Positions 8,280 to 15,000 of a stretch of 64,000 nucleotides of DNA are shown in pieces (the first letter of the stretch is position 1; each line of letters begins with the position of its first letter). The stretch covers positions 14,926,889 through 14,990,888 of the forward strand of contig NC_133289.1 in assembly GCF_005239225.2 (NCBI RefSeq), written 5' to 3'. Under the pieces are notes generated by a model. That model saw only the letters and a program-made list of their open reading frames with translations. It was not told the origin of the DNA and searched no databases. The DNA comes from Populus alba. Taxonomy: Eukaryota; Streptophyta; Magnoliopsida; Malpighiales; Salicaceae. A program made the position numbers and the translations under genes.

Positions 8280-8899
8280 ATGGCAGGTTCCTTAAGTCAT
8301 CACATAAACAATATTTGTGTTTTTGGTGGATCCAGTCCTGGGAAAGAAAAAGAGTTTTTAGAATCAGCAAATCATCTTGGTCAGGTCTAGATGAGTGAAA
8401 GATTCATTTAATGTATGGAGGAGGCAACCTTGGGTTAATAGGGGGAGTGTCAATAGCTGTATTCTTAGGAGGTAGTCAAGTTTTAGAGGTAGTCCCCAAA
8501 GCTTTAGCACAAGGGGATATCATTGGAAAAACAATTAGAGAGGAATTACAGGTCCCCACAATGTCTGATTGACTGAATGCAATGTTTAACCATGTTGATG
8601 CCTTCATTGCCTTACCAGGTGGTCTGGGCACATTGGAAGAGATGTTTCATATTTCCTCTTGGGCCCAACTCCATATTCACCATAAACCCATGCGTTTGTT
8701 AAATGTTAATGGTTTTTATGATAAGTTGTTGTCTTTTCTTGATCATGTTGTGGAACAGGAATTTCTAACATCTTCATCATGACAAATCATAATCTTTGCT
8801 GCTACTACTAAACAATTGATTGACCAACTATAATATTTCATCCCTGTAATTAATCCCTCCATGAGTCGTATAAATTGGTCAACTAAGGTAAGCCGTTAA
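8280..8899 (+). pseudogene. LOG-like cytokinin phosphoribohydrolase, retroelement-borne, broken
   Basis: LOG enzymes release active cytokinin bases from cytokinin riboside 5'-monophosphates. The start is ATG 8280 (MAGSLSHHINNICVFGGS). Recognisable blocks are the Rossmann-like opening ICVFGGS, a damaged GGG-NLG loop, GGSQVLEVVPKALA, and the signature PGGLGTLEE with AFIALPGG before it, then SSWAQLHIHHKP and LLNVNGFYDKLLSFLDHVVEQEF. The best open piece is 8582-8782. The coding match is continuous with no introns, whereas plant LOG genes usually have several. A frameshift and stops near 8385-8420 and a stop near 8570 break it. It sits between integrase and a polypurine tract of the plus-strand gypsy element. 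The family call is firm; substrate is assumed from the family. Confidence 0.8.
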
Positions 8900-9083
8900 A
8901 AGATTAGATTGGATTTGATCCTGTGTTTGTAAATATTTGTGTCTTTTGGTTCTATTATGTGTTTTGTTGTTTCTTATATTTATTTAAGTGTGTTTCAGGT
9001 TTGTCAATGTTTGCTATTTCAAGTGATGTCTTCTATACTCTATCTTTCTACCTTAAGACGTTGAGAACAATGTCTCATTTTGG

Positions 9084-9097
9084 TTGGGGGGAAAGGG
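9084..9097 (+). promoter_or_regulatory. polypurine-tract-like site after LOG
   Basis: A G/A-rich string (GGGGGGAAAGGG) follows a phrase like AGAACAATGTCTCATTTTGG, typical of gypsy 3' regions, and is followed by TTGATATC. The minus-strand element has the counterpart at 14164-14176. The recognised LTR starts only at 9324 here, so this may be an internal tract rather than the functional primer site. Confidence 0.5.
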
Positions 9098-9323
9098 TAT
9101 TAGTTGATATCTTAAAAAAAACCATGTGTTTTCTATTTCATAAACTATTTACAAAACTGTTGTTACTAGGATGGTAGAGTAAAAGGAGTTCTTTTGTTAA
9201 AGTGACTCTTGAGACGCATCTTAGCCGAAAGCTCGTTACATGGGTTAAAGATGCATTGTGTTTTAAGTTATATATGTGTGTGTGTGTGTGTGTATAAAAT
9301 AATCCTAACCCAAGGAAGTTAAC
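9098..9323 (+). other. element 3' segment ahead of a solo LTR
   Basis: Its first 80 bp match the minus-strand element at 14075-14155, so it belongs to the LOG-carrying family. It includes a (GT)n run near 9275-9293 and ends with TTAAC (9319-9323), the left copy of the target duplication of the following LTR. Confidence 0.5.
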
Positions 9324-10756
9324 TGATTAGTACTTAAAAGTGCATATTTATCAAGGTTTTATATCATTATTTTGCACTTAAAGTATCAATAACTCCTTAA
9401 CTAAAGCATGTTTTATAATAACAAGTCTAATACAATAAAATGCCCTAATATATGGTAAATGTTCATCTTAAATTTAGGCCAATCACATAAATCAAAGGAT
9501 TGATTGATGAGTTCAAGTATGGAAATTGAAAGGACAAAGAGAGGGCCAAACTTAGAAAAGAGATGTTGGTGCAGTCCAAACTAGAACACTGTTTGGTAAT
9601 TAGGTCATATCTTGAGTTCTAGATATCCAAATGATCTCAAATTTTTACACAGATTCAGTAAGACATAGTCCTACAACTTTCATGTTTTCATCAAGATCTA
9701 CGAAGGCCGTTTTCAAGTCCAAATTATAGCAACAACGGAGAAGTCCGAATCTATCCTGCAGCCCGAACACTGTTCAGTGTTCGGCCCACATCTGGAGTTC
9801 TAGAAGTCCAAATGACCTCCATTTTTTTCCTGGAAACCTGATTCAATTTCCTACAACTTTCATGTTTTCTAGTGGACCAAGTTCTGATGGTAGCATTTTT
9901 GTTTTATTCAGACAAGAAGATAAGGATTTTCACCAAGTCAAAAGTTGGCCACCCACTCAACAATTAGTCATCAAATCAATAATTCCGAATTTTGGCCTAT
10001 AAAAGGAGGCATTTGCCATGCATTTAGGAGCTTAGTTGTTCAGATCAAGTTCATGCTCTTTATTTCACTCTTTATATGTTTTGTAATTTTTAAGTTTTGC
10101 TTTCATTAATATCTTGTTTATGCTTTTCATTTCCTTTCATTTCCTTAGTTAACTTGTATCTTATTTATGTTCTTATTTTGTTTATTTATGTTTCTCTTCT
10201 TCATTATGTTTAGCTAAGTTTATTATGTCAAGGTGAAAAGGTTACACTAATGGTGTAAGAACAAGTATGGTGTAAACTCAACATGGACCTTAATGTTTAA
10301 TATTAACATGTCTTATCTTTTCATCTTACTAATTCTTAATACCTTGCTTGTTAAATGGTTAATCTAGATTTGTGTTGTATAATACTTGGTACAACAAATG
10401 CTTGGCACTCTCATAGCCCAACTGTATGGTGTTACCCACACCTGTGCTATGAAAGGAACTTGATTTGTTGTTAACATCAATTAACATCATGAATTCCTGA
10501 CAATATTTAAAAGTTTGGTGTTATGTAAATAAGATAATTAATATGATCATCTTAATAATTTATAATGAGCTATTAATGACAAATCATCCGATTGGAACCT
10601 CCTCCGTGTGTGGTTTCCAAATTGAGTAATAAGAGTTTATACTATACTTGTTTGAAATACCATTGGTGGATCCTCTAACCTTGACATTTATTTTTATCAT
10701 TGTTTAATCCTTACATTAATCTTTCATCTCAAAGTTCTCATTAATTTCTTCATCTT

Positions 10757-10877
10757 CTTTTATTATTATTATTAGTAGTAGTACTACTACTACTACTACA
10801 CTACACTACTACTACTACTACTACACACTACTACTACTACTACTATTACTACTACTACTAACTACTACTACTACTAC

Positions 10878-10910
<33 letters not shown>
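10757..10910. repeat. trinucleotide array (ATT/ACT) inside LTR
   Basis: Runs of TTA, TAG, CTA and ATT triplets with interruptions occupy the same position in the LTR as arrays in the other family copies. Confidence 0.85.
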
Positions 10911-12907: not shown

Positions 12908-13574
12908 TGACACAACCAAAAGATTGATGTCTTCTCCCAAGTGTAGGAGTGTTGAAGTAATAAAATAACCCGGCAAGACTGAGGTCGAACCACAGGAAGG
13001 TGACTATATAAATTACAAAATAATAATAATAATAAGTTAAAGAGGACTTTGAGATGTAAGATTAATGTGAGTATTTAACAAATGAAAAAAAAATGTCAAG
13101 GTTAGAGGATCCACTAATAGTATTAGAAATAAGTATAGTATAAACTCTTTTATTAATCAACTAGAAACCACAACACAAAGTAGGTTCCAATTGGATGATT
13201 TATCCTTAATAATTCATTATACTTTTTTAACATGATCATATTAAATTATCTTATTTAAGTAACACCAAACTTTTAAATATTGTCAGGAATTCATGATGCT
13301 AACTTATGTTAACAACAAATCAAGTTCCTTTTATAGCACATGTGTAGGTTATACCATACGGTTGGGTATGAAAGTGCCAAGCATTTTGCTATACCAAGTG
13401 TTATATAACACAAATCTAGATTAACCATTTAACAAGCAAGGTATTAAGAGTAAAGATAAAAAGATAAGGCATGTTAATAACAAACTTTCTTCGATATAAA
13501 CATTGGAAATACATATTGAGTTTATTATTATACCTATTTTAACACCATTAGTGAAACCTTTTCACCTTGACATA
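12908..13574 (-). mobile_element. minus-strand LTR copy, cut by assembly gap
   Basis: It begins TGACACAACC, the reverse complement of the family LTR end, and follows the family until the gap. It probably represents the 3' LTR of the minus-strand LOG element. The base pairs outside it (GCGAG) do not match those outside the 5' LTR (CATGC at 20264), so a simple target duplication is not seen. Confidence 0.7.
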
Positions 13575-14074
13575 NNNNNNNNNNNNNNNNNNNNNNNNNN
13601 NNNNNNNNNNNNNNNNNNNNNNNNNNNNNNNNNNNNNNNNNNNNNNNNNNNNNNNNNNNNNNNNNNNNNNNNNNNNNNNNNNNNNNNNNNNNNNNNNNNN
13701 NNNNNNNNNNNNNNNNNNNNNNNNNNNNNNNNNNNNNNNNNNNNNNNNNNNNNNNNNNNNNNNNNNNNNNNNNNNNNNNNNNNNNNNNNNNNNNNNNNNN
13801 NNNNNNNNNNNNNNNNNNNNNNNNNNNNNNNNNNNNNNNNNNNNNNNNNNNNNNNNNNNNNNNNNNNNNNNNNNNNNNNNNNNNNNNNNNNNNNNNNNNN
13901 NNNNNNNNNNNNNNNNNNNNNNNNNNNNNNNNNNNNNNNNNNNNNNNNNNNNNNNNNNNNNNNNNNNNNNNNNNNNNNNNNNNNNNNNNNNNNNNNNNNN
14001 NNNNNNNNNNNNNNNNNNNNNNNNNNNNNNNNNNNNNNNNNNNNNNNNNNNNNNNNNNNNNNNNNNNNNNNNNN
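13575..14074. other. assembly gap (500 N)
   Basis: Exactly 500 N, a placeholder. By comparison with the plus copy, about 900 bp of LTR plus some 150 bp of element 3' sequence may be missing. Open frames spanning it are meaningless. Confidence 0.95.
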
Positions 14075-14163
14075 TTACTCTACCATCCTAGTAAACAACA
14101 GTTTTGCAAATAGTTTATGAAATAGAAAACACAAGTTTTTTTTTTTTAAATATCAACCTACTA

Positions 14164-14176
14164 CCCTTTCCCCCAC
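14164..14176 (-). promoter_or_regulatory. polypurine-tract-like site of the minus element
   Basis: Read on the minus strand, GTGGGGGAAAGGG follows GAGGATAATGTTCATTTTG. This matches 9084-9097 in the plus copy. It lies after the LOG copy in element orientation. Confidence 0.5.
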
Positions 14177-14356
14177 AATCAAAATGAACATTATCCTCAA
14201 TGTCTTAAGGCTAGAAAGATAGAGTGTAAAAGACATCACTGAAATAACAAACACTAACAAACCTGAAACACATTTAAACAAATAAAAAAAAACAACAAAA
14301 ACACAATATAAAACCAAAAGATGTTAAATATTTACAAACACAGGCTCAAATCCAAT

Positions 14357-15000
14357 CTAATCTTTTTTACGGCTTTTCTTAGTTGACCAATTTATGCGGC
14401 TCATGGAAGGATTAATTATAGGGATGAAAGATTGTAGTTGGTCAATCAATTGTTAATCAATTGTTCAGCAGTAGCAGCAGAGATTATGATTTGTCGTGCT
14501 GAAGATGTTAGAAATTCCTGTTCCACAACATGATCTAGAAAAGACAACAACTTATCATAAAAACCATTAACATTTAACAAAACCTATGGGTTTATGGTGA
14601 ATGTGCAGTTGGGCCCAAGAGGAAATATGAAAGATCTCTTCCAATGTGCCCAGACCACCTGGTAAGGCAATGAAGGCATTGGCATGGTTAAACATTGCAT
14701 TTAGTCAATCAAACATTATGGGACTTGTAATTCCTCTCCAATTGGTTTTTCCAATGATGTTCCCTTGCTGCTAAAGCTTTGGGGACAACCCCCAAAACTT
14801 GACTACCTCCTAAAATGCAACTTTTTGACACTCCCCCCATTAACCCAAGGCTGCCTCCTCCATACACTAAATGAATCTTTCACTCAGCTAGTACCTGACC
14901 AAGATGATTTGCTGACTCAAAAAACTCCTTTTTCTTTCCTAGGATTCGGATCCACCGAAACACAAATATTGTTTATATGATTGCTTGAGGAACCTGTCAT
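14357..15000 (-). pseudogene. LOG-like gene, second retroelement copy, broken
   Basis: This is the second LOG copy, from ATG 14998-15000 (minus) to a stop near 14357, about the normal length of the family (some 214 codons). The glycine loop VYGGGSLGLMGGV is better preserved than in the plus copy, and FIALPGGLGTLEE, SSWAQLHIHHKP and LLNVNGFYDKLLSFLDH are present. A TGA replaces an Arg codon (CGA) in the LAERKIHLVYGGG block, and small indels shift the frame near the start and in the middle. It is intronless, like the plus copy. It lies between integrase and small-ORF remnants upstream and a polypurine tract downstream, the same order as in the plus element. C-terminal basic residues (KKSRKKD) close the frame. 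Confidence 0.8.

What the first reader, a model, noticed from the sequence alone, without database searches (positions are those of the whole stretch)
8280..15000. A gypsy retrotransposon family carrying a LOG (cytokinin-activating) gene
Two element copies in opposite orientation (8280-8899 plus; 14357-15000 minus) each hold an intronless LOG-like coding region at the same place: after integrase and small-ORF sequence and before a polypurine tract. Seen directly: PGGLGTLEE, the glycine loop and SSWAQLHIHHKP in both copies, with shared leader and trailer. The two elements have different internal deletions, so they are unlikely to be one simple local duplication. Known: LOG enzymes release active cytokinins; plant LOG genes normally have introns; some gypsy lineages carry an extra ORF at this position. 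Inference: an LTR element captured a host LOG and spread it. If intact copies exist, the element could alter hormone status of cells in which it is expressed.
Basis: partly seen in the sequence, partly recalled or inferred. Interest (0 to 1): 0.9.

Follow-up and report, generated by a model that had tools for sequence, protein, structure and literature searches.

The report
Retrotransposon with hormone and virus-like genes
In a poplar genome, a jumping-gene family carries an intron-free gene of the cytokinin-activating LOG enzyme family (over a hundred near-identical copies found), usually with a gene resembling plant-virus zinc-finger proteins just upstream, and these two extra genes would likely push host cells towards growth and away from silencing the element.

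Summary
Both window copies are decayed LOG frames (Pfam PF03641, E=1.8e-24 for one piece) in degenerate gypsy elements. There, 150 of 150 scored LOG places are full length, intron-free and at least 94% identical; 138 have no stop. Ten of ten loci examined have an upstream LTR match (K2P 0.001-0.022 in eight measured). It precedes LOG in 29 of 30 young copies (three weakly) and 18 of 20 older ones. Changes shared among old copies hold fewer amino-acid replacements than singletons (pooled p=0.002), suggesting that both genes were kept by selection. The LOG is not a recent copy of a sampled poplar LOG (46-47% identity; it branches outside the sampled seed-plant LOGs). LOG domains in LTR-retrotransposon consensuses of Citrus and P. 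trichocarpa are in print; I found no print of the virus-like partner. Best reading: a two-gene module, likely anti-silencing plus local cytokinin release; function untested.

The parts
4955..5632 (+). element 1, reverse transcriptase / RNase H piece
   Evidence: PF00078 E=7e-20, PF17919 E=3.2e-12
6321..7416 (+). element 1, integrase and end of pol (broken frame)
   Evidence: ORFs; weak rve match, E=3.1e-4, below its cut-off; 6791-7416 is 93% identical to young copy L001
7490..7923 (+). element 1, CRP-like gene (carlavirus NABP type), degenerate; C-terminal open piece 7666-7926
   Evidence: Carla_C4 E=1.4e-4, Viral_NABP 0.01 (below cut-off) for the piece; 92.6% identical to young copy L001
7928..8279 (+). 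element 1, CRP-LOG spacer with a TATA-like box before the LOG ATG
   Evidence: 90% to L001; TATAAAT in 30 of 30 young and 15 of 18 old spacers
8280..8922 (+). element 1, LOG-like gene, intronless, stops and frameshifts
   Evidence: PF03641 E=1.8e-24 for 8573-8782; 89% to L001
8953..9224 (+). element 1, truncated 3' untranslated region with internal purine run 9086-9097
9324..11234 (+). element 1, 3' LTR
   Evidence: 82% and 79% in two pieces to the LTR of L009; ends GTGTCA
11269..12763 (+). second LTR fragment, same orientation
   Evidence: 82-86% to the LTR of L009
12908..13574 (-). element 2, 3' LTR fragment, cut off by the 500-N gap 13575-14074
   Evidence: that it belongs with the 5' LTR below is inferred: the two differ by K2P 0.26
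14075..14309 (-). element 2, 3' untranslated region up to the gap
   Evidence: 77% to L001
14342..15000 (-). element 2, LOG-like gene, stops and frameshifts
   Evidence: 88% to L001; frames
15001..15362 (-). element 2, CRP-LOG spacer
   Evidence: 87% to L001
15450..15755 (-). element 2, pol piece (integrase zinc-binding part, weak)
   Evidence: 89% to 2942-3247; Integrase_H2C2 E=0.0041, below cut-off, in ORF 15525-15956
15852..18334 (-). element 2, gag-side internal region from the primer-binding site
   Evidence: 87% to the 5' internal region of the L007 element; decayed primer-binding site
18337..20263 (-). element 2, 5' LTR
   Evidence: 73-78% to the LTR of L009; its flanks show no target duplication with the 3' LTR fragment

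Best explanation
An LTR/gypsy retrotransposon family of this poplar genome carries two accessory genes between pol and the 3' LTR, a gene matching carlavirus-type nucleic-acid-binding proteins (CRP) followed by an intronless LOG-family gene, and the pair likely acts as a host-manipulation module. Shown: gene order, young copies with open frames, LTR pairs and (in 5 of 9) target duplications, invariant LOG active-site residues, and a moderate signal of selection against amino-acid change in the transmitted lineage. Inferred: the CRP weakens RNA silencing and/or switches on host growth genes, as carlavirus CRPs do. Inferred: the LOG enzyme releases free cytokinin from its nucleotide in cells that express the element. 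Inferred: together they favour survival and division of cells in which new copies are made; because plant shoot meristems feed the germline, that would raise transmission. A TATA-like box 65-72 bases before the LOG start in young copies suggests, untested, that LOG has its own promoter.
For: LOG: 150 of 150 scored places full length at 94% or more, 138 without a stop. CRP: 150 of 150 scored places full length, 142 without a stop. CRP upstream of LOG, same strand, in 29 of 30 young copies (three weak) and 18 of 20 older copies chosen by non-coding similarity. LTR match upstream in 10 of 10; K2P 0.001-0.022 in eight; 5-bp duplications in 5 of 9 and primer-binding site in 8 of 9. Two full-length CRPs above Pfam cut-offs; 23 of 36 relatives match Carla_C4, 19 of 36 Viral_NABP. 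LOG: R98 and E121 invariant, TIGR00730 above cut-off, model (pLDDT 72.7) matches plant LOG 2a33, E=1.4e-20. Selection: singletons 247 N/80 S, shared 46 N/34 S, p=0.002; young/old near-fixed LOG differences 10 N/14 S, p=0.006. Carlavirus CRP roles: PMC12172455 and PMC7588395, passages.
Against: No expression, enzyme or silencing data. LOG is 47% identical to plant LOGs and 45% to a bacterial one, so its substrate may differ. The CRP match covers one short domain; 13 of 36 relatives miss Carla_C4 at E 1e-3 and its fold model is poor (pLDDT 49.6). L021 has no CRP; L013, L015 and L023 have only a weak C-terminal match; a CRP ORF with the cysteine motif was read in 22 of 30. The selection signal is moderate: two stop changes in each gene are shared by three or more old copies, singletons exceed the assumed neutral ratio (so the expectation is rough), CpG sites were set aside, the young-copy test gives p=0.09, and near-fixed CRP differences are too few (1 N/3 S, p=0.10). 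Whether the LOG-bearing elements of Citrus carry a CRP was not tested.
Confidence: 0.45

Rival explanations
1. Passenger genes: CRP and LOG were picked up by a successful element and ride along without helping it.
For: Of 20 older copies only 1 (L053) keeps an unbroken LOG frame over the fetched 207 codons. Some young copies lack a good CRP. A few stop changes are shared among old copies.
Against: Shared changes are depleted in amino-acid replacements relative to singletons; 138 of 150 LOG and 142 of 150 CRP best places are open, though those places were chosen by protein similarity.
Confidence: 0.25
2. LOG works but for another purpose than cytokinin: a divergent nucleotide phosphoribohydrolase acting on other nucleotides or in element replication.
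For: Long branch and 47% identity to plant LOGs; some solved LOG relatives are in complex with AMP (titles).
Against: R98, E121 and the PGGxGTxxE motif positions are invariant across the element and plant LOGs compared.
Confidence: 0.2
3. The CRP resemblance is convergence: a basic four-cysteine protein that only looks like a carlavirus NABP.
For: Short matched region; poor fold model; cysteine spacing C-x2-C-x4-C-x3-C, read in 22 of 30 copies, is tighter than in carlaviruses (recalled).
Against: Two separate Pfam families of viral NABPs both exceed their gathering scores for the two full-length members tested.
Confidence: 0.2
4. Two local copies made by one inverted segmental duplication next to a host LOG gene.
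For: Opposite orientation and 87.5% identity over 1.4 kb.
Against: Over a hundred dispersed copies; different deletions and LTR contexts; no host-LOG pattern site within the window.
Confidence: 0.01

Closest known systems
LTR-retrotransposon consensuses with a YgdH/LOG domain in Citrus sinensis, C. clementina and Populus trichocarpa (Alvarado-Marchena et al. 2022, PMC9289625, section 12 read; it credits Steinbauerova et al. 2011, not held, not seen)
   Same: LTR retrotransposon carrying a LOG-family domain; same genus in one case; their filtered extra domains were all in Gypsy-type elements
   Different: That section reports only the domain's presence. P. trichocarpa passed only with their five-consensus filter off; here over a hundred LOG copies were scored
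Phalaenopsis gypsy elements with an AlkB-type m6A demethylase (PMC9289625, abstract and section 12)
   Same: Gypsy element with an added enzyme gene proposed to counter host control
   Different: Different enzyme; there demethylase activity was shown in vitro, here nothing was assayed
Carlavirus / mandarivirus CRP (NABP), e.g. chrysanthemum virus B p12 (PMC7588395 and PMC12172455, passages)
   Same: Matches PF01623 and PF05515; basic run followed by a cysteine cluster
   Different: Encoded by a chromosomal retrotransposon; function untested; direction of transfer unknown
Plant LOG enzymes (At2g37210, PDB 2a33)
   Same: Fold, active-site residues, about 47-51% identity
   Different: Intronless, in a retrotransposon, on a long branch outside the sampled seed-plant LOG clade

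Membership tests
LTR/gypsy retrotransposon | paired LTRs | tested here: met
   10 of 10 loci have an upstream LTR match; L014's was cut by the edge of the fetched stretch and L012's ran past the LTR
LTR/gypsy retrotransposon | target-site duplication | tested here: met
   5-bp duplication in 5 of 9 loci; not seen or unresolved in 4
LTR/gypsy retrotransposon | gag, and pol with RT and RNase H before integrase | tested here: met
   gag PF03732 E=3.7e-19 in L038; RT and RNase H pieces at 4955-5632 above cut-off, then integrase, whose rve match is below its cut-off
Athila lineage | primer-binding site TGGCGCCGTTGCCGGGG (tRNA-Asp assignment and link to Athila recalled) | tested here: met
   8 of 9 loci with at most one difference
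Athila lineage | RT phylogeny within Athila | not tested
   no reference RT set was on hand
Athila lineage | env-like ORF after pol (recalled) | not tested
   CRP and LOG were found in the pol-3'LTR interval; no search for an env-like protein was made
LOG / TIGR00730 | family profile above cut-off | tested here: met
   TIGR00730 165 bits against 96; PF03641 130 against 27
LOG / TIGR00730 | NCBI equivalog NF058542 cut-off | tested here: not met
   112 and 128 bits against 300; an Arabidopsis and a Populus LOG also fail at 132 and 116, so the cut-off does not separate them
LOG / TIGR00730 | active-site Arg and Glu, PGGxGTxxE (roles recalled) | tested here: met
   R98, P113, G115, G117, T118, E120, E121 invariant and G114 nearly so in 24 rows
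LOG / TIGR00730 | cytokinin-nucleotide phosphoribohydrolase activity | not testable with these tools
   needs an enzyme assay
Carlavirus-type CRP/NABP | Pfam PF01623 and PF05515 above gathering score | tested here: met
   26.3 and 30.0 against 20.9; 32.9 and 31.5 against 23 for two full-length members; at E 1e-3, 23 and 19 of 36 relatives match
Carlavirus-type CRP/NABP | four-cysteine cluster after a basic run | tested here: met
   C-x2-C-x4-C-x3-C in ORFs of 22 of 30 copies; KKRRAKR before it; zinc binding untested
Carlavirus-type CRP/NABP | silencing suppression or nuclear activation | not testable with these tools
   needs a bench assay

The most novel reading that the evidence does not exclude
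A plant retrotransposon that manipulates its host like a virus: a CRP gene shared with plant RNA viruses disarms silencing while a co-carried LOG enzyme floods the cell with active cytokinin, so the element drives its own host cells to divide and spreads through the meristem.
Probability: 0.3. Interest if true: 0.93.

Novelty: new variant of a known kind. Interest (0 to 1): 0.75.

Why it matters
Plant retrotransposons are usually seen as passive targets of silencing. A young, multi-copy family that keeps two host-directed genes under selection would make it testable whether elements shape hormone state and silencing in meristems, in a forest tree where cytokinin governs growth. It would also link plant RNA viruses and retrotransposons through a shared accessory gene.

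Tried and rejected
Local inverted duplication: rejected by the genome-wide copies. Recent capture of a sampled Populus LOG: not supported. Bacterial origin of LOG: the best bacterial matches listed reach 48%, but the tree puts the element LOG with plants at 100/98. The smaller tree left its place among plants open, and long-branch effects could misplace it.

Led nowhere: fold model of the CRP (pLDDT 49.6), not searched further. Viral contig scans with CRP and LOG gave no relative. The search with At2g37210 letters was swamped by element copies, as was the 73-residue piece (one host exon listed); a codon pattern for LLNVDG[Y/F]YN found 15 sites with 0 in the backward control.

Rows dropped: one search left out L058 and L065 for LOG, and L058, L065, L070 for CRP. 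One search also left out L059 among old CRPs and L013, L015, L021, L023 among young CRPs. One search lost one of 25 bacterial rows. Searches examined 10, 9 and 8 of 30 loci. One search fetched the first 20 of the 39 trailer places other than the window.
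Full report
What is there. The window lies at C6:14926889-14990888 of a 416 Mb assembly. Contig lengths 16,454,697 and 54,846,348 equal those recorded for two Populus alba proteins, so I take it as P. alba. Two LOG-like coding regions lie at 8280-8922 (+) and 15000-14342 (-); both are broken by stops and frameshifts. 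A 210-base piece of the first scores E=1.8e-24 with PF03641. The copies share leader and trailer at 87.5%.

A second accessory gene. The small ORF upstream of LOG (7666-7926) matches Carla_C4 (E=1.4e-4) and weakly Viral_NABP (0.01). Its relatives include 145-aa proteins named in P. alba and P. x canadensis (395 hits, 120 listed). Those two exceed Pfam's gathering scores for both families. Of 36 relatives scanned, 23 match Carla_C4 and 19 Viral_NABP at E 1e-3. In 30 young loci a CRP ORF with the four-cysteine motif was read in 22; the commonest length is 182 aa (12 of 30).

A mobile, young family. A search with the P. alba LOG protein scored 150 of 1766 first-look candidates. All 150 are full length and intron-free at 94% identity or more; 138 have no stop. 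The CRP search scored 150 of 1492: all full length at 94% or more, 142 without a stop. First-look numbers are unverified, and scored places are chosen by similarity. In the 30 best LOG loci a CRP match lies upstream on the same strand in 29 (three of these weak) and an LTR start follows in 29. Ten of ten loci have an LTR match upstream, K2P 0.001-0.022 in the eight measured, 5-bp duplications in 5 of 9, and a primer-binding site in 8 of 9. The window copies are much older (K2P 0.12-0.26 between their LTRs or bodies).

A less biased sample. Using only non-coding trailer DNA as query, 40 places were scored; I fetched the first 20 of the 39 other than the window itself. LOG is in 20 of 20 and CRP in 18 of 20. 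Only 1 of 20 (L053) keeps an unbroken LOG frame over the 207 codons fetched.

Selection. Measured against one extant copy, with CpG sites set aside, changes seen once in these old copies and the window's fall as 103 N/36 S (LOG) and 144 N/44 S (CRP), above a rough neutral ratio of 2.15. Changes shared by three or more fall as 26/19 and 20/15 (Fisher p 0.042 and 0.022; pooled 0.002). Stop changes, counted apart, are 4 single and 2 shared for LOG, 8 and 2 for CRP. The same test on young LOGs, chosen by protein similarity, gives 20/16 against 6/14, p=0.09. Near-fixed differences between young and old groups are 10 N/14 S for LOG (p=0.006) and 1 N/3 S for CRP (p=0.10). Both genes therefore look kept while the family was moving; the signal is moderate, and the samples are related copies, not independent events.

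LOG origin and chemistry. Element LOG is 47% identical to Populus LOG3 and 45% to Pseudomonas LOG. With 24 bacterial rows it groups with plants (100/98) but outside a supported clade (97/93) of 12 seed-plant LOGs; the smaller tree left this open. Fifteen sites of a host-LOG codon pattern exist in the genome. Of these, eight were fetched: all are split by introns, and seven are 42-54% identical to the element LOG where their last matching exon could be compared. A recent capture from these is not supported; an unsampled plant paralogue or old capture is open. Arg98 and Glu121 are invariant and the model matches plant LOG structures.

Mechanism (inferred). Carlavirus CRPs suppress silencing and activate host genes, with hyperplasia reported for one (PMC12172455 and PMC7588395, passages). 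LOG enzymes release active cytokinin (established). A pair of this kind would weaken silencing of the element and favour division of the cells that host it. A TATAAAT box lies 65-72 bases before the LOG start in 30 of 30 young copies, and one is present in 15 of 18 old spacers, so LOG may have its own promoter; the young copies are close relatives, so this is not 30 independent cases.

Prior work. PMC9289625 (section 12 read) reports a YgdH/LOG domain in LTR-retrotransposon consensuses of two Citrus species and P. trichocarpa, citing Steinbauerova 2011 (not held). I saw no report of a CRP-like gene in a retrotransposon in the listings, nor in the passages read of PMC7264820 and PMC3136472; only open-licence papers were searched.

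Noticed in passing
window 2546-4477 and 4806-6738: A pol segment is present twice in opposite orientation at 93.6% identity, so a further element piece lies head to head with element 1.
   Followed up: no
window 56103-57434 (-): A diverged LTR of the same family (67-70% to a young LTR) lies in the far part of the window; a further fragment is at 22365-23090.
   Followed up: partly
window 12769-12907: A short block of repeated GGCATGCCAAGGAAGG-type words separates the two oppositely oriented LTR ends.
   Followed up: no
L016 and L001, CRP C-terminus: CRP ORFs end at 145 aa in some young copies and read on to 182 aa in others (3 and 12 of 30).
   Followed up: partly
window 13575-14074 and 23092-23591: Two 500-N assembly gaps, each abutting an LTR fragment of this family.
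   Followed up: no
L012 element (L041, L042): The LTR match continues past the LTR into internal sequence, suggesting a tandem element.
   Followed up: no
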